Source: Saccharomonospora amisosensis
Lineage (GTDB): Bacteria > Actinomycetota > Actinomycetes > Mycobacteriales > Pseudonocardiaceae
DNA length: 64,000 nucleotides
Direction: 5' to 3'
NCBI RefSeq assembly: GCF_011761185.1
Contig: NZ_JAAOYM010000002.1
Coordinates: forward strand, 62,001-126,000
Shown here one piece after another: positions 55,456 to 64,000 of the stretch. Below the pieces are notes generated by a model. That model had not been told where the DNA came from. It made no database searches and worked only from the letters and a program-made list of their open reading frames with translations. How positions within the stretch are numbered: the first letter of the stretch is position 1; each line of letters opens with the position of its first letter. A program made the translations under genes and the position numbers.

Positions 55456-55499
55456 GGTAGCTGCCCGCCCGCCCCTCGGTAGGCGGGCGGGCAGCTACC
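55456..55499. terminator. Bidirectional terminator, 18-bp stem
   Basis: An 18-bp perfect stem (55456-55473 with 55482-55499) with an 8-base loop. It follows the CxxC gene on one strand and overlaps the stop of a short leftward frame on the other. Confidence 0.8.
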
Positions 55500-55707
55500 A
55501 CTTGGCGTGGCACGGAAGCTTTTGGACACTGCCTTTGCGTTCCTTGTGCCAATACGCTGCCCGGCCCTCGAGCCGGGCTTCTTTTGCGTAACAGTCCACT
55601 TCGCGCTGTGGTGACACCCCGTCGGTGCCCACCAACCATTCCTGGCGGCAAGTGAGCAATACCGTTTTGCCCGCACCATCGCCAACTGGCCAACGGTGCG
55701 GGCACAC
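55495..55707 (-). CDS. Doubtful small ORF after the ESX substrate gene
   Basis: About 70 codons from a GTG, with WLVGTDGVSPQREVDCYAKE and AAYWHKERKGSVQKLPCHAK, ending inside the terminator stem. The amino-acid mix is protein-like, but no family is recognised, the start lacks a ribosome site, and two other frames over the same bases are also open. A hairpin (GCCCGCACC at 55669-55677 with GGTGCGGGC at 55695-55703) lies within its start region and may terminate the upstream gene. Together with 55364-55494 this fills the gap between the CxxC gene and the ESX substrate; nothing else seen there. Confidence 0.25.
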   Translation of the reverse strand: MCPHRWPVGDGAGKTVLLTCRQEWLVGTDGVSPQREVDCYAKEARLEGRAAYWHKERKGSVQKLPCHAKW

Positions 55708-55765: not shown

Positions 55766-57790
55766 TCAGTGCCTGCCCTCGATGGCGGAAACCTGTTCCG
55801 GGCGGTACTTCGATTCCTTCGTGGCCGACGAGACCACCGGCCCACCGGGTGTACGCACCTCCCAGGTCGGCTTCGTCACCGCCGGACCCGTGTGCTCGCC
55901 CTGCACGACGGAGCGAGTCGTCCGGTCCGCGTACGCCTGCGGCCGAGCCTGGCGGTCGTGTTCTTCCGCCGCGGCAGCAGAGGCGCCACGCAGTTCGACG
56001 GGGACGTCGCCGGCAGGCTCCGCGGTTTCGACCCGTACAGGCCCGACCCTGCCCTCGAACACCGGCGAGGTGCCCTCGGCCACGCCCGTCTCGAACTCGG
56101 AGAGCTTTCGGTAGGACTTGCCGCGGCGTTGCGAGGTGCTGGGTGGCCGCACGCCTTCGGTTGACTGTTGCACTCGCGGATTCGCCAGCAGCGGGGGTAC
56201 GGCACCAGGAGTGGTGCGGCTTGTCGCCGCCGCGGCTGCCGCATCGGTGCTGATCGCTTTGCTACGCCTGCGGTTGGCGACACGATTGTCCAGCACGGAC
56301 GGTGTGGCGGGTGGCGGGGGGCGGAAGGCTTCTGGAATCTCAGGGTGCTGCACCGGCAGCGTCGGCGCGGCCGGTTCCTTGGCGCGATGCGCGGGTGTGC
56401 TGCCGGGCGGCGGGACGGGTGGAGTGGAACCAGCCAGCCCCGGTGTCGATGATCCGATGATCTTGCCTTGCTGCCGCTGCTGCGGTGGTTTGCCCGGAGG
56501 GGTGGTCGAGGGCGGTGGCGGGATCGTGCCCGGCGGGTAGCCGCCGTTACCCGGCATGGCGGGTATCCCGGGAGCTTGGCCGGGCGCGGCAGGTGGCGTC
56601 GCCGGGGCTCCCGGACCGCCAGGGGGCAGAACGGGGACTTTGGACGGTGTGCCAGGACCCAGACCCAGGCCGGGGGCGGTGCGCAGCGACCCCGGCGTTC
56701 TGGGCGCACCTGGGCCGAGTACCGGGGCCAACGGCACGCCAAACATGCCAGACCCACCCGCGCCCACTGGCGGCACCTGCGGGGGTGACGGTGGCACCGG
56801 TGCGTTCGGCACCGCTGGAGCGTTCGGTGCCGGGGGCGCCGTCGGTGCGCCCGGTGGTGAGCTCCCACCACCGGGAGTCGCGGGAGTGTCGCCGCTGAAG
56901 GCCGGTGCGTTCTGGGCGAATGTTCCTGGCGCGCCCGGAGCGCCCGGGGCGCCCGGGGCACCCGGGGCTCCGGGAGAGGCCGGAGGGAGCGGACCACCGT
57001 TCGCGCTGGGATGCAACACCGCGTTGAGCGGGTCGAGCATCTTCGCCCGACCCATCTGGAGCTTCTGGATTACCGGCGCGTAGGCGTTCGCGGTCTCGCT
57101 GGCCAGTTCGCGGGCCTTCTGGTTGTACTCGTCTTTCGTCCTGCCCACTTCGGTGAGATTGTCGAGCGTCTTGTAGTACTCGATCATCATCTTGCGCTGG
57201 TCGCCCTTCAGTCCCCTCATGGGGCCCGTGGCCAGGTGGGCTTCCGCGGATTCACCCAGCTCCCGGTGATACTCCGCCCACAGGTCGCGCATCTTGGACT
57301 GTGCGATTGTCATCTCGGCGGACAGGTTGTAAAGCGCCTCGGCGTTGGCCTCCGCCGCCTCACTCCAGACCTGCGCGTATGCCATTGTCTCACCGACCTG
57401 TCGCAGGAAGGCGTCCTTGGCCTCCGGTGACTCCCACTTGGCTTCCAGGTCGAGGGTCTGGTTGTAGAGCTCGTTCTTGACGTAGAACAGCATCGAGGCG
57501 ATGTTCGACCACACACCGGCTCGTTCCAATGTGGTGCCCGGCTGCTCGCCCATGATCTGCATCTTGACCTGGTCGATCGTGATGCCGTCGGCGGCGTCGG
57601 ATTTCGGATCGGGAGTCTCCGGAGGTGGGCCGGACTGGGGCTTCTTGCCGGTCTCTGCCTCTTGCTGCCGTTCCCACTCCGTCGTGTAGTACATGACCGC
57701 TGACGGCACGTACGGGACGTAGCCACCACCGTGCGACAGTTGGCGCAGGTAGGAGATGCCGTAGCCGAAGTAGAGATCGGATTCGCCCAC
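55766..57790 (-). CDS. ESX-linked PPE/WXG-like protein with collagen-like linker
   Basis: A 674-aa protein, no signal peptide. Residues 70-260 form a helical bundle resembling WXG100/PPE proteins: a Trp-Glu-Ser turn at 119-121 (LEAKWESPEAKDAFL), long helices, and YKTLD (206-210), which fits the YxxxD/E export signal of type VII substrates. From 270 to 520 it is Pro/Gly-rich, including a collagen-like GAP triplet run near 273-288 and many PPG/PGAP units. The last 150 residues are charged and disordered with a GxAEGTSPVFEGRVGPVRVE block. It should be secreted by the adjacent EccC. It follows the next gene by six bases. Confidence 0.7.
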   Translation of the reverse strand: MGESDLYFGYGISYLRQLSHGGGYVPYVPSAVMYYTTEWERQQEAETGKKPQSGPPPETPDPKSDAADGITIDQVKMQIMGEQPGTTLERAGVWSNIASMLFYVKNELYNQTLDLEAKWESPEAKDAFLRQVGETMAYAQVWSEAAEANAEALYNLSAEMTIAQSKMRDLWAEYHRELGESAEAHLATGPMRGLKGDQRKMMIEYYKTLDNLTEVGRTKDEYNQKARELASETANAYAPVIQKLQMGRAKMLDPLNAVLHPSANGGPLPPASPGAPGAPGAPGAPGAPGTFAQNAPAFSGDTPATPGGGSSPPGAPTAPPAPNAPAVPNAPVPPSPPQVPPVGAGGSGMFGVPLAPVLGPGAPRTPGSLRTAPGLGLGPGTPSKVPVLPPGGPGAPATPPAAPGQAPGIPAMPGNGGYPPGTIPPPPSTTPPGKPPQQRQQGKIIGSSTPGLAGSTPPVPPPGSTPAHRAKEPAAPTLPVQHPEIPEAFRPPPPATPSVLDNRVANRRRSKAISTDAAAAAATSRTTPGAVPPLLANPRVQQSTEGVRPPSTSQRRGKSYRKLSEFETGVAEGTSPVFEGRVGPVRVETAEPAGDVPVELRGASAAAAEEHDRQARPQAYADRTTRSVVQGEHTGPAVTKPTWEVRTPGGPVVSSATKESKYRPEQVSAIEGRH

Positions 57791-57796
57791 GGTGGC

Positions 57797-58813
57797 TCAC
57801 AGCCCCGTGCGCATGGTGGCGCGCTGCAACGCGTCGTCGGTCTGCCGCATCCAGTCGTCGGTCGTCACCGCGGGCGGTTGCCGGGGGATGTAGCGCTCGT
57901 CGGTGCGCTCCGTCGTCACCTTGCCGTCCTCGTCCTTCTTCTCCGTGAGGGTGTAGTACTCACGGCTTTCGGTGCCGTCCTCGTGTTTCGTGGTCACGAT
58001 GTGGCGGGTCGTGGTGGTCTCGTTGCCGTTGGCGTCCACGGCCGTGGTCGTCACCTGCGAGTGAGTCGTGCCGCCCCTGATTACTTCCGTTGACTCCTTG
58101 GTGGTGGTGCTGACCTTCTCGCCTTCGTCGTCGTAGCTGGTGGTCACCGAGTCGCCGTTGAGATCCGTCGTGACCTCGTAGACGGTGTTGCCCTTCTTGT
58201 CGTAGCCCACCTCAGTTGTGCCACCAGGATGGTGCGTGACCTTCCGCGTTCCCCCGCTGGCCGTCCGGTACTCGTAGATCGTCACCGGGCCGTAGCTCTT
58301 CGTCGAGATGAGCACGTCGTCGTTCGGGTTGATGTCAGCCGCGCCGCTTTCCGACATCGCTTGCTCGATGGTCTTGCCTTCGGCGAGATACTGCGGAAGG
58401 TTCGCGGGTTTGTCGGCCCCCGGCACCGCGAAGGCCCAGTTCACCGCGTCCAGCGTCGCACCGCTGGCGTTGTCGGTGTTCTCGTACAGGTCGGCGAGGA
58501 TGTGCGCGCACGAGGGGATGGCCGTCAGGTTCTGCCGCAGGTCCTGGATGAACGCCACTATCTCGCTCGCGTTGCGCGAGGTGAGCTGGTCGCAGTAGGA
58601 GCCTTCCGGGAAGCCGCCCGTGCTCAGTGAGACGTCCTTGCCGCCACCGTTCACGAGCATAACCGGGCCCATCATGTCGTCCTGCAGGTTGGTCCCGATC
58701 GCCGCGACATTGGTGGCATAACCCCGAAACGTGCTGGAATCCGCGTCGATCACGGCGTTGCCATCGTAGGTCCATGCCGCCGCGACAGGTCCCGAGTAGG
58801 GTGGCTCCCCCAT
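57797..58813 (-). CDS. ESX-linked protein with YD-like beta repeats
   Basis: A 338-aa protein without signal peptide. The N-terminal 130 residues are helical with two Cys (74, 102) and the candidate type VII signal YENTD (110-114). From residue 170 on, short beta hairpins repeat about every 20 residues (VGYDKKGNTVYEVTTDLNGD, TTSYDDEGEKVSTT, NGNETTTTRHIVTTKHEDGT), recalling YD/RHS repeats of secreted toxins but without a recognised toxin end. ATG at 58813 follows GGAGGAAG. It lies between eccC and the PPE/WXG-like gene in one operon, so export or assembly with that protein is likely. Confidence 0.65.
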   Translation of the reverse strand: MGEPPYSGPVAAAWTYDGNAVIDADSSTFRGYATNVAAIGTNLQDDMMGPVMLVNGGGKDVSLSTGGFPEGSYCDQLTSRNASEIVAFIQDLRQNLTAIPSCAHILADLYENTDNASGATLDAVNWAFAVPGADKPANLPQYLAEGKTIEQAMSESGAADINPNDDVLISTKSYGPVTIYEYRTASGGTRKVTHHPGGTTEVGYDKKGNTVYEVTTDLNGDSVTTSYDDEGEKVSTTTKESTEVIRGGTTHSQVTTTAVDANGNETTTTRHIVTTKHEDGTESREYYTLTEKKDEDGKVTTERTDERYIPRQPPAVTTDDWMRQTDDALQRATMRTGL

Positions 58814-58961
58814 GGCTTCCTCCGTCTGCACTGTGGACGTGTTCGACTGGACAGTTCGAGTGGACAGTTCGATGGACCAAGCCCCGGAAGGCAGCGGCGA
58901 CGCTGCCCGCGTCATCCAGCTAACCACCACGGGTCAACCCCCCGGCTTGGTCGAACCTGCT

Positions 58962-61900
58962 TCACTCCTGTTGAGGTAGATGCGCGAACTGCACGAGCAG
59001 TTCCCCCTGGGAACGGGTAATGAGCCAGCCCCGGCCCGTCGGGAGCGGTCCCGGCCTCCGGTTGCCGATGAGCGGCCCCTCCTCACGGTTGCCGGACATC
59101 AGGATTCCCGGTGAGGCCAGATCGCGGATGCGCGAGACCACCGGATCGAACAACGCGCGGCCCGCGCCACCTGAGCGCCGGGTCACCACAAGGTGCAGGC
59201 CGATGTCGCGGCCTTGCGTCATGAACTCAAGCAGCGGTGCCAGCGGGTTGCTGTGCGAGTTCGGGGCCACCAGGTCGAGGTCGTCGACGAGGATGAACAG
59301 TTCCGGGCCACTCCACCAACTGCGGTTACGCAGTTGCTCGGGAGTGATGTCGCCTCCTGGCAGGCGTTTGGTCATCGCGTCGATCGTGACGTGGACCATC
59401 TCCTGCACGGTTTTCGTCGCCGTCGCGTATCCGATGAGGTACTCGTCGGGAATCAGCCCCAGCAGGCTGCGCCGGAAATCCACGACCGCGATCTGGGCCT
59501 GCTCCGGCGTGTAGCGCCCCATGATGCCGGTGGCGAGCGCGCGCAGGAAGTTGCTCTTGCCCGACTCCACATCGCCGAACAGCAGCAGATGAGGTTCCGC
59601 CTCGAAGTCGAGGTAGACGGGCTGCAGGTCGGTTTCGGCGATGCCGACCGGGATACCGGGGCCCTCGTCGGCGGGAGGAAGCTCGGAGTACGGCAGGTCG
59701 GTCGGCAGCAGCCGCACGCGTTGCGCGGCAGGACCGGTCCATCCGGCGTTGATCGAGTCGATCAACTGCTTGATGCCTTCCGAGAGCTCGGCATCGGTGC
59801 AGCGGCCGTCCACTCGCGGCACGCCGGCCAGGAACTGCGCGCCGTCCGGCGAAAGACCCCTGCCGGGTGCCTGCTCCGGCACGGCCGCCGCCTGCCGCCT
59901 GCCGAACACCGAGTCCACCGGATCACCGAGCCGCAGCTCCAGCTTGCTGCCGAACATGTCTCGCACGTTCATGCGCAGGTCCATCCACCGGTTCGCGGCC
60001 GCTATGACGTGCACGCCGAAGCCGAGGCCGCGGTTGACCAGTTCGGTGACGGTTGGCTCCAGTTGCTCGTACTCGGTACGCAGCGTGGCCCAACCGTCCA
60101 CGACGAGGAACACGTCGCCGAAGTTGTCCTCCGGAAACTTGCCCTCCCGCAGCAGCTTGCGGTAGGTGGCCATGCTGTCGATTCCGTGCTCGGAGAACCG
60201 TTGCTCGCGTTCCAGCAGCAGGTTGTACGCCTCGGCGACGCTGCGCCGCACCTCGGTGGTGTCGCGCCGGGTCGAAACGCCACTGACATGGGCAAGTCCC
60301 CGCATCGAGGCCAGCCCGCCGCCACCGAAATCCAGGCAGAAGAACTGCACCTCGGCCGGGGTGTGGGTGAGCGCGAGGCTGCCCATGATCGTGCGGATCA
60401 CCGTGCTCTTGCCGCTGTGCGGACCGCCGACGACGACCAGGTTCCCGCCCGCGCCGGACAGCTCAAGCCAGCACACGTCCCTACGCTGTTCGGCAGGCCG
60501 GTCGATGACACCCGCGGCCGCGGTCAGCGCCCCCCACAGGTTCGGGTCCTCGGTCGTCAGGCCGCGCTCGGAATCGGTCCGCAGCGCCGTCAGCAGTTGG
60601 TCCAGGGTCGGCGGCTCGGCCAGCGGGGGCAGCCACACCTGGTGTGCGGGCCTGCCGTTGCCCTCCATCCGCTCCACCAGCACGTCGAGCAGGGTCTCGC
60701 CAGCCTCGGCTTCGTCGTCGCGGCTCTGGGTCGGTTCGAGCTGTTCGGTGGTGCGGGGCCGCAGGTAGCGCGTCGAGTACTCCTGTACCGGGTCGATGTG
60801 CCTGCCCTGGTCGTCGGTGCGTACCGCGCTGGCGCCGCGCCGGTGGACGCCGGACACGTACGCCGCCCGGAACCTGACGAGATCCTCGGTTCCCGCGCGC
60901 AGAAAGCCGTTACCGGGCGCGCGGGGCAACTGGAAGGCGTCGGGGGCGCCGATCGCGGCCCTGCTCTCCATGGCGGAGAACGTCCGCAAACCGATCCGGT
61001 ACGACAGGTGTGAATCCAGGCCGCGGAGCCTGCCCTCCTCCAGCCGTTGCGACGCCAGCAGCAGATGCACGCCCAGTGAGCGGCCCACCCGCCCGATCTG
61101 GACGAACATGTCGATGAAGTCGGGCCGAGCGGTGAGCAGTTCGGAGAACTCGTCAACGATCACCAGTAGCGCGGGTAGCGGTTCCAGCGGCGCGCCCGCG
61201 GTGCGGGCCTTTTCGTAGTCACGTTGGGAGCCGTAGTTGCCCGCCTTTCGCAACAGTTCCTGGCGACGCAGCAGCTCACCCTGGATGGCGTCGAGCATGC
61301 GGTCCACCAGGTGCAGCTCGTCGGCAAGGTTGGTGATCACCGCGCTGGTGTGCGGGATCCGGTCGAGCTTGGTGAAGGTGGCGCCGCCCTTGAAGTCCAC
61401 CAGCACGAAGTTGAGGATCTCCGAGTCGTGCCTGATGGCGAGTGCCAGCACCAGGGTGCGCAGCAGCTCCGACTTTCCGGAACCGGTCGCGCCGACGAGC
61501 AGGCCGTGTGGCCCCATGCCGTCCTGTGCCGACTCCTTCAGGTCGAGTTCCATCGGCCTGCCGTCGGCGGTCACCCCGATCGGCACCCGCAACCGGTCCC
61601 GATTCGACCGCCTCGCCCAGCTTTCGGAGAGGTCGAACTCGTACGGGTCGCCGAGTCCGAGCAGGTCGGTCAGCTCCAGCGAAGTGGCCAGCGGTTGTTC
61701 CGCGGTGGTGGCCGAGGACAGCCGCAGCGGGGCGAGCGTGCGCGCGAGGCCGAGCATTCCGGCCGGGTCGAGCGAGTCGGCCTTGCCGACGGTGCTCTCT
61801 CCGTCCATCGTCCTGCTCCGCAGGGTCCCGTCGGCGGCGATGTCCAGCACGAGTGTCGTGGCGTCCAGCAGTCTTGGTGGTGTGCCGGACAGGTCGATCA

Positions 61901-62930
61901 GCGTGGTTCCCTCGACGCCGCCCTCGATCATGAGGTGTTCCGAGCCCGCCGTGTCACCCCCGTCGAGGACCACGACGACGTGTGTGGAACCGTCCGCGGG
62001 CGGGGTGGCGGGGTTGAACCTCGGCCGGTTGGCGAGCACGTCGTCGAGCATCGCCTCGATCGCGGTGATGCTGGGCGCGACGAGGCGGATGGGGCCCACC
62101 GCATCGTGCTTGTCGGGATGCAGCGCGTGCGGAATCCATTTCGCCCAGTCCCATGCCTGCCGATCCCTCGGGCCCACGCAGAACGCGGCCAGCACGTCGC
62201 CAGGAGCGTGGAAGGTGCCGAGTTGGGCGAGCATCGCCCTGGCGAGCCCGCGCCCCCGTTCGGTGTCGCCGGTGACATAGATGCGGGAGAACCCGCGAAG
62301 CGCCACCGCCACGGGCAGGTCGGGCACCGTGGAGTAGGTCGTCACGAACTTGCGCAACGCCATCGCGCAAAGCGGTTCCAGCTCGTCGACCGGTTTGGTC
62401 TCCGGCGGCACCAGCGGCGTTGCGAGTTCCTGGCTACCAAGTCCGATTCGGATGATCGTGAAGTCCCAGTCGCCCGGCCTGCGTTCCCACACTCGCGCGC
62501 TCTGCGCCGTTGACCAGAGGCGGTCGGGGTCGGGGTGGCGGTAGAACATGGCCTGACGCTGGCGCGAGATGGTGTCTCGAACCTGTGCGCGTAGCTGGCT
62601 CAGCTTGCGCATGTACTGCCGCCGGTTCTGGATCATCTCCTGCTTGCCAGGCCCCTGTCCGGCCTGGCTCATGATCTGGAACAGGATCATCCCGAGAACC
62701 GCGGCACCGTAAAGGCCGCCCGCTACGTACATGATCGGCCCCGGCGACCGCGCACCGATCAGCAGTCCCATACCGGCGGTGCCCGCCAGCATCGGCAGGA
62801 TCATCAGGACCCTTGTCCAGTTCTTTCCGGTGACGGGCGGGTTCTCAGGTGGCGGGTCCAAAACCACTTCACCGGAAGGCAGTTCGGGCGCGGGCCTACG
62901 TATGGGCCGCTTGACTATGATCGTTGCCAA
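58962..62930 (-). CDS. eccC: Type VII secretion ATPase EccC (fused EccCa-EccCb)
   Basis: A 1322-aa FtsK/SpoIIIE-type motor. Two N-terminal transmembrane helices (VLMILPMLAGTAGMGLLIGA; IMYVAGGLYGAAVLGMILFQ) precede three P-loop ATPase domains: GATGSGKS near residue 480, GGPHSGKS near 837 and GDVESGKS near 1122. The first has Walker B-like LPALLVIVDEFSELL. The single chain joins what mycobacteria often split into EccCa and EccCb. It binds substrate export signals through the last domain and powers secretion. The TTG at 62930 (LATIIVKRPIRRPAPELP) has GGGAGG seven bases ahead; longer frames have no site. It is divergent from eccD by 98 bases. Confidence 0.95.
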   Translation of the reverse strand: MATIIVKRPIRRPAPELPSGEVVLDPPPENPPVTGKNWTRVLMILPMLAGTAGMGLLIGARSPGPIMYVAGGLYGAAVLGMILFQIMSQAGQGPGKQEMIQNRRQYMRKLSQLRAQVRDTISRQRQAMFYRHPDPDRLWSTAQSARVWERRPGDWDFTIIRIGLGSQELATPLVPPETKPVDELEPLCAMALRKFVTTYSTVPDLPVAVALRGFSRIYVTGDTERGRGLARAMLAQLGTFHAPGDVLAAFCVGPRDRQAWDWAKWIPHALHPDKHDAVGPIRLVAPSITAIEAMLDDVLANRPRFNPATPPADGSTHVVVVLDGGDTAGSEHLMIEGGVEGTTLIDLSGTPPRLLDATTLVLDIAADGTLRSRTMDGESTVGKADSLDPAGMLGLARTLAPLRLSSATTAEQPLATSLELTDLLGLGDPYEFDLSESWARRSNRDRLRVPIGVTADGRPMELDLKESAQDGMGPHGLLVGATGSGKSELLRTLVLALAIRHDSEILNFVLVDFKGGATFTKLDRIPHTSAVITNLADELHLVDRMLDAIQGELLRRQELLRKAGNYGSQRDYEKARTAGAPLEPLPALLVIVDEFSELLTARPDFIDMFVQIGRVGRSLGVHLLLASQRLEEGRLRGLDSHLSYRIGLRTFSAMESRAAIGAPDAFQLPRAPGNGFLRAGTEDLVRFRAAYVSGVHRRGASAVRTDDQGRHIDPVQEYSTRYLRPRTTEQLEPTQSRDDEAEAGETLLDVLVERMEGNGRPAHQVWLPPLAEPPTLDQLLTALRTDSERGLTTEDPNLWGALTAAAGVIDRPAEQRRDVCWLELSGAGGNLVVVGGPHSGKSTVIRTIMGSLALTHTPAEVQFFCLDFGGGGLASMRGLAHVSGVSTRRDTTEVRRSVAEAYNLLLEREQRFSEHGIDSMATYRKLLREGKFPEDNFGDVFLVVDGWATLRTEYEQLEPTVTELVNRGLGFGVHVIAAANRWMDLRMNVRDMFGSKLELRLGDPVDSVFGRRQAAAVPEQAPGRGLSPDGAQFLAGVPRVDGRCTDAELSEGIKQLIDSINAGWTGPAAQRVRLLPTDLPYSELPPADEGPGIPVGIAETDLQPVYLDFEAEPHLLLFGDVESGKSNFLRALATGIMGRYTPEQAQIAVVDFRRSLLGLIPDEYLIGYATATKTVQEMVHVTIDAMTKRLPGGDITPEQLRNRSWWSGPELFILVDDLDLVAPNSHSNPLAPLLEFMTQGRDIGLHLVVTRRSGGAGRALFDPVVSRIRDLASPGILMSGNREEGPLIGNRRPGPLPTGRGWLITRSQGELLVQFAHLPQQE

Positions 62931-62937
62931 GGCCGAA

Positions 62938-62943
62938 CCTCCC
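62938..62943 (-). promoter_or_regulatory. Ribosome-binding site deciding the eccC TTG start
   Basis: GGGAGG lies seven bases before TTG at 62930 and there is no comparable site for the upstream GTG/ATG codons in this frame. Confidence 0.7.
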
Positions 62944-63028
62944 GAGAGCGGTTTATCGTGACCCACTGCCGTGGTGCACATTGTTACTCTGCCAGTCGAG
63001 GCGGGGTTCCCAGTTGGAGGTGTGCGGC

Positions 63029-64000
63029 ATGACGTCGGCGATGGGCCTGAAACTGGCCAAGGTGACGATCTCCACGCCGAAACGTGGTATCGATGTCGCC
63101 TTGCCCGAAGACGTCACGCTCGCGGAACTGCTTCCCTACATTCTGCGGCACGCCGGTGACGAAACCGCGGACGCCGGCGAGCGGCACGGAGGCTGGGCGC
63201 TGAGCCGTCCGACAGGTGAACGGCTGGACCCGAGGCAGACCCTTGGCGCGCAGGGCGTCCGCGACGGCGAGGTACTGCACCTCGTTGCCGGGCAGGTCGA
63301 ATGGCCGGAGATCGAGTACGACGATCTGATGGAGACGATCGCCAGCGGTGCCCGGCGTTACGGCCGCAGCTGGGGGCGCGCGGCGACGCGGCGCTGCGGA
63401 CTCGCCGTGGTCGTGGGGATTCTCGCCTTGGCGACGCTGGTCACGTTCCTGTTCCGGCCACCTTGGCTGGTGCCCGGTCTGGTACTGCTCGGCGCGGCGA
63501 CCGTGCTGATGGCGGCGGGCGTCGTCGTCGCGCGGACGGTTCCCGACGCGCTGGCTGGCGCCGCGCTCGCAGGTCCCGGGCTGGTCTACGCCTTTCTCGG
63601 CGGGCTGGTGCTCACCGCGCCGGATCACGCGAACCTGTTCAGCATGGGGGCACCGAGGCTGCTGCTCGGTTCGATCTCGCTGCTGGTGTTCGGGATCGTG
63701 GGTTACGTGGGCATCGCGGCTGTCGGCCGGGTGTTCATGGCCGCGATCACCATCGGACTGCTCGGCACACTCGGCGCGTTGTTCGGCAACCCGCTCAGTC
63801 CGGACGGCGCGGCGGCACTCGTACTGACCGTCGGAATCGCGTTGTTGCCTGGCTACCCGATGCTCGCGGTGCGGCTCGGTCGGGTTCCGCTGCCCGAACT
63901 TCCGCAGCGCTCCGCGGAGCTGCTCGAGGACGACAAGCCTGTGCCGACGCCCGCCGTCTTCGCCGCCGCGGCCCGCGCCGACGAGGTCCTGTCGGGGTTG
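63029..64000 (+). CDS. eccD: Type VII secretion membrane channel EccD (3' end outside window)
   Basis: The first 324 codons of EccD, cut by the window edge. After MTSAMGLKLAKVTISTPKRG comes a ubiquitin-like cytosolic domain (IDVALPEDVTLAELLPYILR, LDPRQTLGAQGVRDGEVLHL), then a linker and the first of eleven expected transmembrane helices (GLAVVVGILALATLVTFLF, LVPGLVLLGAATVLMAAGVV, GLVYAFLGGLVLTA, LLLGSISLLVFGIVGYVGIA, AAITIGLLGTLGALFGN, and more). EccD dimers line the central pore of the ESX complex. GGAGG (63016-63020) precedes the ATG by eight bases. EccB and MycP should follow just beyond the edge. Confidence 0.9.
   Translation, partial: MTSAMGLKLAKVTISTPKRGIDVALPEDVTLAELLPYILRHAGDETADAGERHGGWALSRPTGERLDPRQTLGAQGVRDGEVLHLVAGQVEWPEIEYDDLMETIASGARRYGRSWGRAATRRCGLAVVVGILALATLVTFLFRPPWLVPGLVLLGAATVLMAAGVVVARTVPDALAGAALAGPGLVYAFLGGLVLTAPDHANLFSMGAPRLLLGSISLLVFGIVGYVGIAAVGRVFMAAITIGLLGTLGALFGNPLSPDGAAALVLTVGIALLPGYPMLAVRLGRVPLPELPQRSAELLEDDKPVPTPAVFAAAARADEVLSGL

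What the first reader, a model, noticed from the sequence alone, without database searches (positions are those of the whole stretch)
55766..63028. ESX operon carrying a collagen-like PPE/WXG-like protein and a YD-like repeat protein
Directly downstream of eccC lie two coupled genes that are not the usual EsxA/EsxB pair. Both show a YxxxD motif (YKTLD and YENTD) after a helical N-terminus and lack signal peptides. One continues into a Gly/Ala/Pro triplet run and a long PPG-rich linker, the other into RHS/YD-like beta repeats. A secreted pair built as rod plus repeat domain would be an unusual ESX cargo or an extracellular appendage. No small WXG100 gene is seen beside eccC.
Basis: partly seen in the sequence, partly recalled or inferred. 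Interest (0 to 1): 0.65.

Follow-up and report, generated by a model that had tools for sequence, protein, structure and literature searches.

The report
PE–PPE-like pair beside secretion ATPase
Next to the motor gene of a type VII protein-export system, this actinomycete carries a conserved two-gene pair that looks like a distant relative of the mycobacterial PE/PPE partner proteins, with a flat beta-sheet on one partner and a long flexible arm on the other, in a gene neighbourhood that also holds a very large, uncharacterised open reading frame.

Summary
The pair is real and conserved. Downstream of eccC lie a 338-aa gene (57797-58813, minus) and, 6 nt on, a 674-aa gene (55766-57790). The first has a PE-like helical hairpin ending in [YF]xxxD, then a single-layer beta-sheet with RHS/YD affinity. 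The second has a PPE/WXG-like helical domain, a Pro-rich linker and a conserved C-terminal tail. Folded as one chain, the two superpose best on EspB, the PE-PPE substrate of ESX-1 (Z 13.2, 217 residues; middling for helical bundles). The order eccC, PE-like, PPE-like recurs across the family. The locus also holds a YbaB-like gene, a small helical protein and an 8,996-codon ORF. Homologues of that ORF follow in 18 of 18 extended loci, and the pair accompanies one in another family without local ecc genes. Best reading: a PE-PPE-type, probably EspG-independent adaptor/substrate pair of an ESX-4-like system that may export giant proteins. Gene order and conservation are shown; fold and pairing are predicted; secretion and function are inferred.

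The parts
58962..62981 (-). eccC (fused EccCa-EccCb, 1339 aa)
   Evidence: TIGR03924 942.7 bits and TIGR03925 858.8 bits, both over cut-off; best-scoring solved relative 4nh0 (FtsK/SpoIIIE), then EccC5
57797..58813 (-). PE-like protein, 338 aa (corrected start ATG 58813)
   Evidence: 21 homologues; start: ribosome site and upstream stops in 17 of 21 homologues
58484..58729 (-). PE-like helical hairpin, residues 29-110
   Evidence: AlphaFold helices 29-55 and 73-110; included in the superposition with EspB by range
58472..58486 (-). YENTD, aromatic-xxx-D motif directly after helix 2
   Evidence: [YF]xxxD in 20 of 22 sequences
57878..58315 (-). YD/RHS-like single-layer beta-sheet, residues 167-312, 11 strands in the model
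   Evidence: pLDDT 73-88 in blocks of ten from residue 171 to 310; OspA, TCP10 and teneurin matches at Z 8-11; profile match to an RHS protein
55766..57790 (-). PPE-like protein, 674 aa, GTG start 6 nt after the PE-like stop, same frame
57053..57577 (-). PPE/WXG-like helical domain, residues 72-246
   Evidence: domain alone pLDDT 82; top matches PPE15 and PPE41; Pfam PPE match in 16 of 26 sequences at E up to 1, not in the window's own
57428..57436 (-). WES (W119-S121), at the place of the WxG turn
   Evidence: WES 17, WKS 6, F-x-S 2 of 26 sequences; one row reads W-S through an alignment gap, its protein reading WSG; lowest-entropy stretch of the domain
56192..57013 (-). Pro/Gly/Ala-rich linker, 274 residues, holding the (GAP)n run
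   Evidence: 28% Pro; 248-432 residues in the 26 sequences with a measurable linker
55769..56146 (-). conserved C-terminal tail with WEVxTPGGPVV-type motif
   Evidence: alignment A6, 26 sequences; no further place beyond those 26 in 30 genomes searched (first look capped)
63029..64000 (+). eccD, divergent, runs off the window
   Evidence: PF19053 and PF08817 in the full gene

Best explanation
The two genes encode a heterodimer of PE-PPE (EspB-like) architecture that belongs to an ESX-4-like type VII system. The PE-like hairpin and the PPE-like helical domain pack together. The aromatic-xxx-D motif behind the PE hairpin, with the WxS turn of the PPE partner, forms the export signal read by EccC. 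By analogy with PE35/PPE68 in ESX-1, the pair engages EccC and licenses export of co-encoded substrates (the WXG100 pair and, by conserved neighbourhood, the giant protein). The long Pro-rich arm with its conserved tail and the flat beta-sheet would serve to hold or hand over that cargo. Shown: gene order, conservation, neighbourhood. Predicted: folds and packing. Inferred: dimer in the cell, secretion, adaptor role, and independence from EspG (no espG lies in the locus and the helical tip, where EspG would bind, is the most variable part of the domain).
For: Fold: the pair folded as one chain has five EspB PE-PPE entries at VIA ranks 1-5 (Z 12.7-13.2, 217-231 residues aligned, model range 27 to 596-603), against 159-168 residues and Z 8.2-8.7 for PPE-only chains, which implies that the PE hairpin shares the superposition. 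PPE-like domain alone: ranks 1-4 of both Foldseek and VIA are PPE chains. Sequence: at E up to 1, Pfam PPE matches 16 of 26 and WXG100 7 of 26 members, best 1.9e-4 and 4.7e-6. Signal: [YF]xxxD in 20 of 22. Synteny: of 26 strong PPE-like places outside the own genome, 22 have the PE-like gene within 4 kb and 21 have eccC within 5 kb on the same strand. EspG: 8 in the genome, the nearest on this contig about 168 kb from the pair. Tip: distal helix and tip loop 2.17 and 2.05 bits against 0.99 at the WES turn. Cargo link: a homologue of the giant ORF in 18 of 18 extended loci, out of 21 ecc-bearing loci, and pair plus 119-aa, WXG-type, YbaB-like, 124-aa and giant genes in 3 of 3 loci of another family without ecc genes in the 20-kb piece. 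Role of PPE68: passages of PMC9765416.
Against: Z 11-13 is within what unrelated helical models can reach (tool note), and BAR domains tie with PPE chains for the PPE-like domain alone (I-BAR 4nqi Z 11.1). VIA only re-ranks Foldseek's hits: Foldseek itself gave no match at E below 0.001 for either model, and for the joined model its top 50 are mostly OspA, without EspB. The joined model reads a stop codon as Trp, has mean pLDDT 64.7 and pTM 0.51, and comes without an interface score. Pfam PE matches none of 22 PE-like members, and profile searches of PDB sequences found no PE, PPE or EspB for either protein. The motif is strictly YxxxD in only 9 of 22. Four PPE-like places have no ecc gene in the stretch fetched. 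Whether the giant module occurs without the pair was not searched. No secretion data exist.
Confidence: 0.55

Rival explanations
1. The pair is an end-product cargo: an EspB-like secreted effector or surface structure split over two genes, whose beta-sheet and Pro-rich arm act outside the cell, perhaps after mycosin cleavage of the linker.
For: EspB is the closest fold and is itself secreted, cleaved in its C-terminal region by MycP1 and able to form heptamers (passages of PMC9811218). A subtilase gene in mycP position lies in the locus. PPE-like copies away from ecc genes suit a substrate.
Against: One PPE-like place in 18 of the 21 genomes with strong hits, usually fixed beside eccC, and a conserved C-terminal tail, which fits a role at the machine better. 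Oligomers and cleavage were not tested.
Confidence: 0.25
2. Collagen-like rod plus YD-repeat appendage.
For: Six Gly-X-Y triplets in the window (1 of 300 shuffled linkers reached this) and twelve in the congener (0 of 300); beta-sheet with RHS affinity.
Against: The other homologues with a measurable linker have runs of 2-5 triplets, within shuffled range, so the run looks like a recent local expansion.
Confidence: 0.05
3. The second gene is an EspK-like chaperone (helical WxG-type N-domain, disordered linker, C-terminal binding domain) for the first, rather than a dimer partner.
For: Same overall layout as EspK: N- and C-terminal domains joined by a low-complexity linker, with a WxG motif at the N-terminus (passages of PMC9811218); conserved C-terminal tail.
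Against: The conserved tail is about 125 residues, while the solved EspK fragment is 484-729. The joined model places the hairpin with the PPE-like helices as in EspB. The tail was not compared with EspK.
Confidence: 0.1

Closest known systems
EspB (ESX-1, fused PE-PPE)
   Same: Predicted helical core of both proteins superposes on it as one unit (Z 13.2, 217 residues); EspB too has a C-terminal region behind the PE-PPE core and does not depend on EspG (passages)
   Different: Two genes instead of one; beta-sheet behind the PE hairpin; conserved C-terminal tail. An espK-like gene was not searched for
PE35/PPE68 and other PE-PPE pairs
   Same: Two adjacent genes, PE first, next to eccC (mycobacterial order recalled); PPE-type fold predicted; PPE68 is needed for export of EsxA and EspE (passages of PMC9765416)
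   Different: No match to the Pfam PE or PPE model for the window's proteins; WxS instead of WxG; no espG in the locus; the PE partner carries an RHS-like beta-sheet
ESX-4 clusters
   Same: eccC, eccD, eccB, mycP and two WXG genes; PMC4791881 lists these components for ESX-4 and reports ESX-4 in Pseudonocardiales (passages)
   Different: That list has no pe or ppe; here a PE-PPE-like pair, a YbaB-like gene and a giant ORF are added. The genome has another full, divergent ESX locus (EccC 49% identical). No tree was built
RHS/YD repeat proteins
   Same: The beta region's profile matches an ORF with 12 RHS repeats
   Different: Short single-layer sheet of 11 strands in the model; Pfam RHS matches only 2 of 22 members, best E 0.04

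Membership tests
PE-PPE heterodimer / EspB | PPE-type helical domain | tested here: met
   Domain alone pLDDT 82; PPE chains at ranks 1-4 of Foldseek (E 0.02-0.04) and VIA (Z 11.1-11.9, rmsd 3.7-4.7, 168-171 residues); at the level of predicted fold only, BAR domains tie at Z up to 11.1
PE-PPE heterodimer / EspB | PE-type helical hairpin docked on the PPE domain | tested here: inconclusive
   EspB entries at VIA ranks 1-5 for the joined chain, but the chain reads through a stop, has pTM 0.51 and no interface score, and Z is within the range of helical models
PE-PPE heterodimer / EspB | Sequence match to PF00934 (PE) above cut-off | tested here: not met
   0 of 22 members at E up to 1; no PF00934 match in the own genome
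PE-PPE heterodimer / EspB | Sequence match to PF00823 (PPE) above cut-off | tested here: not met
   No match for the window protein. Among relatives 16 of 26 at E up to 1, best 1.9e-4; one relative 22.6 bits, cut-off 26
PE-PPE heterodimer / EspB | YxxxD/E export signal behind the PE hairpin | tested here: inconclusive
   YENTD in the window; [YF]xxxD 20 of 22, YxxxD 9 of 22 in the family
PE-PPE heterodimer / EspB | WxG turn in the PPE partner | tested here: not met
   WES here; WES 17, WKS 6, F-x-S 2 of 26, and one row with a gap at this place whose protein reads WSG
PE-PPE heterodimer / EspB | Secreted through ESX | not testable with these tools
   needs culture-fluid analysis
ESX-4 cluster | eccC, eccD, eccB, mycP and a WXG pair | tested here: met
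   mycP named from a subtilase hit and its place
ESX-4 cluster | no eccA, eccE or espG in the cluster | tested here: inconclusive
   espG searched and not there. eccA and eccE were not searched with models; the genes from the PPE-like gene to the end of the giant ORF leave none unassigned. Genes beyond both ends were not identified
ESX-4 cluster | EccC in the ESX-4 clade of a tree | not tested
   no tree built
Collagen-like protein | long conserved Gly-X-Y repeat | tested here: not met
   6 triplets here, 12 in the congener, 2-5 in the other homologues with a measurable linker
RHS/YD repeat | RHS/YD repeats above Pfam cut-off | tested here: not met
   No match for the window protein; 2 of 22 members at best E 0.04. 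Fold and profile affinity only
EspK | folded C-terminal EspB-binding domain | not tested
   tail not folded or compared with EspK

The most novel reading that the evidence does not exclude
A PE-PPE-type pair built as cargo adaptor for an ESX-4-like system whose main substrate is a protein of roughly 3,000 to 9,000 residues: a type VII exporter for giant proteins. In this reading the Pro-rich arm and its conserved tail, with the beta-sheet, capture or feed the giant chain. If so, PE-PPE pairs can work without a local EspG and EccE, and may be older than, or have arisen apart from, the plasmid-borne systems proposed as their origin.
Probability: 0.3. Interest if true: 0.85.

Novelty: new variant of a known kind. 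Interest (0 to 1): 0.55.

Why it matters
A published model has pe, ppe, espG, eccA and eccE enter a plasmid-borne ESX ancestor together, and lists ESX-4 components without them (PMC4791881, passages). A PE-PPE-fold pair fixed beside eccC without a local espG, and with no eccE found in the cluster, would give a simpler system in which to ask what such pairs do at EccC. It does not by itself overturn that model: PF00823 and PF14011 (EspG) genes occur elsewhere in these genomes (PPE in 21 of 21 searched; EspG in 10 of 10). The constant neighbourhood with a giant ORF makes a direct test possible: does the pair license export of one defined, very large protein?

Tried and rejected
Collagen rod: rejected by comparison of linkers. 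YKTLD as a second export signal: rejected. Absence of WXG100 genes: an effect of the window's edge. [DN]xxG repeat count as proof of YD repeats: weak; 5 found against 1.7 shuffled in the window (0.016 of shuffles reach it), and below 0.05 in only 3 of 22 sequences. Scan of genome contigs with the first protein alone found no relative. Profile searches of PDB sequences found nothing relevant for either protein, and phmmer of the second only low-scoring matches, the best to a nucleoid-associated protein, the next two with E 0.16 and 0.25. Foldseek of the joined model listed mostly OspA in its top 50, TM-scores near 0.1, no E below 0.001 and no EspB among the 50 rows shown; the PPE-like domain alone had PPE chains first but also no E below 0.001. 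Literature: the held library has no paper with 'type VII secretion', 'Pseudonocardiaceae' and 'PPE'; some searches listed 1, 8, 3 and 9 papers, none seen to describe this pair, but I looked only at listings and at passages of a few of them; 'giant protein' with 'type VII secretion' and 'actinobacteria' gave two. Seven papers were seen as passages only, the rest as listings, none in full.

Rows dropped or limits: PPE-like copy L046 (short open frame) and the weak hit L061 were left out of A1 and A6; the weak hits L062 and L063 gave no tblastn match. A3 used 9 of the 26 rows of A1. The 26 places found with A6 are the same sequences it was built from, so one search shows only that no other place was found, in 30 genomes chosen by me (22 because one search found the PPE-like domain there), with at most 144 first-look candidates scored per genome. 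The start codons of homologues were chosen nearest to the expected place; one search checked the start independently. Eighteen of 21 ecc-bearing loci were extended; L056 and L059 were not, and the congener was read. BLAST runs on loci had the low-complexity filter off, which can inflate weak matches.
Full report
What is in the window. On the minus strand eccC (58962-62981) is followed by a 338-aa gene (57797-58813) and, 6 nt on, a 674-aa gene (55766-57790). EccC is a fused EccCa-EccCb, 943 and 859 bits to the NCBIfam models. The longest frame of the first gene starts at GTG 58930, but 17 of 21 homologues have an in-frame stop within 39 codons upstream of the start that matches ATG 58813; in the congener the last residues and the GGAGGA site are the same and a stop lies further up.

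Surroundings. The window is part of contig C2 of a 5.5-Mb genome. Past its right edge the plus strand carries the rest of eccD, eccB and a WXG100 pair of 122 and 95 aa, then come a subtilase gene in mycP position on the minus strand, a YbaB-like gene (PF02575, 61 bits), a 112-aa protein and an ORF of 8,996 codons (C2:130997-157987). So an Esx-type pair is there. The genome has 8 EspG genes, the nearest on this contig about 168 kb from the pair. eccA and eccE were not searched with models, but no gene between the PPE-like gene and the end of the giant ORF is left unassigned. The genome has two further loci with EccC_b matches over cut-off. One has EccC (49% identical), EccD, EccB and mycosin-like matches and two small WXG-type genes; the other an EccC-like ORF of 1,483 codons without an EccD or EccB match in the stretch read.

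Conservation. The PPE-like N-domain was found in 24 of 200 genomes of the family (9 of 46 genera), own and congener included; three of the 24 are weak. tblastn on fetched stretches gave 27 places outside the own genome, 26 of them strong. Of the 26, 22 have the PE-like gene within 4 kb, 21 have eccC within 5 kb on the same strand, and 22 have an ecc or mycP match in the stretch. The PE-like gene comes first in 19 and second in 3. In L040, counted as lacking it, the profile does find a PE-like match between eccC and the PPE-like gene. Gaps between the two genes are -1 to 7 nt in 13 of 18 measured cases and 19 to 64 in 5. Named examples are Saccharopolyspora, Amycolatopsis and Prauserella. In the order, the PE-like profile matched 17 of 298 genomes, 7 of them in the own family. 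Of the other ten, six carry the whole pair and four match only in the beta region. In three of the six the pair sits beside eccC-eccD-eccB; in the other three no ecc or mycP match lies in the 20-kb piece, but a 119-aa gene, a 96-aa WXG-type gene, a YbaB-like gene, a 124-aa gene and an ORF of at least 2,387 codons do, in all three. The N-terminus of that ORF matches the own giant ORF (E 2e-13 to 7e-11).

PE-like protein. The model has helices 29-55 and 73-110, YENTD right behind, eleven strands (167-312) and a last helix. [YF]xxxD holds in 20 of 22. Fold matches are OspA's free single-layer sheet, TCP10 domains and teneurin (Z 8-11). One of the weak profile matches, the only one followed, lies in an ORF with 12 RHS repeats and a HINT domain. 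Pfam's PE model matches no member.

PPE-like protein. The domain alone folds with pLDDT 82 into helices 22-30, 34-66, 72-138, 146-157 and 163-197 of the fragment. PPE chains lead Foldseek and VIA, and EsxA/EsxB entries match the first hairpin at rmsd 1.5-2.4 in six of seven rows (5.6 in one). BAR domains tie (Z up to 11.1) and no Foldseek E-value is below 0.001, so the assignment rests on rank and coverage, on the WxS turn and on the Pfam PPE signal in 16 of 26 members, not in the window's own. The linker is 22-31% proline in the 26 sequences with a measurable linker. The C-terminal tail was found at 26 places in 21 of 30 genomes, all of them sequences the profile was built from, and nowhere else among the candidates scored.

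Pairing. The two genes are in one frame, so reading the TGA between them as Trp gives a single chain for AlphaFold. Five EspB entries rank first by VIA (Z 12.7-13.2), aligned from residue 27 (PE hairpin) to 596 or beyond (PPE domain); 217-231 residues align, against 159-168 for PPE-only chains. This implies that the hairpin lies where the PE half of EspB lies. Limits: mean pLDDT 64.7, pTM 0.51, no interface score, Z within the range that helical models can reach by common arrangement, and Foldseek's own top 50 does not show EspB. I mark it inconclusive as a membership test.

Mechanism. In M. marinum the PE35/PPE68 pair is needed for export of EsxA and EspE, the authors propose that it activates EccC, and the last 10 residues of PPE68 matter for EspE (PMC9765416, passages). 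EspB is served by EspK rather than EspG, at the helical tip (PMC9811218, passages). The pair here fits such an adaptor or first substrate. Of eight stretches of the domain compared, the distal helix and tip loop are the most variable (2.17 and 2.05 bits, 38% gaps in the loop) and the WES turn the least (0.99), which argues against a conserved EspG-type partner. The steps from fold to function are inference.

Giant ORF. In 18 of 18 loci extended past mycP (of 21 ecc-bearing loci) an ORF of 2,970 to at least 6,200 codons follows, each with a BLAST match to the own giant; 16 of the 18 run off the fetched piece, so those lengths are lower bounds. The congener's is open for at least 5,712 codons. 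Pfam on 8,968 of the 8,996 residues gave nothing over cut-off and two weak matches at E up to 0.01; NCBIfam on the first 6,501 gave none at E up to 0.1. Giant multi-toxin proteins of actinobacteria are mentioned in PMC3482391 (passage); whether this one belongs with them is open.

Comparison with print. PMC4791881 lists the ESX-4 components without pe or ppe, reports ESX-4 in Pseudonocardiales with frequent rearrangements, and derives pe, ppe, espG and eccE from a plasmid ancestor (passages). PMC11217815 calls ESX-4 the only T7SS of non-mycobacterial Actinomycetota such as Nocardia and Gordonia (passage), while PMC2763215 notes two PPE-like genes in a second locus of Nocardia farcinica (passage). 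I saw no paper that describes this pair (listings and passages). Other PPE-domain genes are common in these genomes: PF00823 matched 21 of 21 searched.

Verdict. A real, conserved, ESX-linked pair of probable PE-PPE type, new as a variant rather than as a kind. Its link to a giant-protein module is the most interesting part and is directly testable.

Noticed in passing
genome G000 C2:130997-157987 (L003 from 11998, L077, L089), beyond the window: ORF of 8,996 codons in the same ESX locus; no Pfam family over cut-off in the 8,968 residues scanned; homologous giant ORFs in 18 of 18 extended family loci.
   Followed up: partly
L109, L110, L111 (another family of the order): PE-like/PPE-like pair with 119-aa, WXG-type, YbaB-like, 124-aa and giant genes but no ecc match in the 20-kb piece.
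   Followed up: partly
G015 C1 near 226-230 kb, 4.69 Mb and 4.91 Mb (L038-L040): Five PPE-like copies in one genome, two of them with no ecc match within the 20-kb piece.
   Followed up: no
L046 (G035 C1 near 2.39 Mb): PPE-like gene with a shortened open frame and no PE-like match in the piece, perhaps decaying.
   Followed up: no
window 55456-55500: GC-rich inverted repeat about 270 bp past the PPE-like stop, a possible terminator without a T run (read by eye).
   Followed up: no
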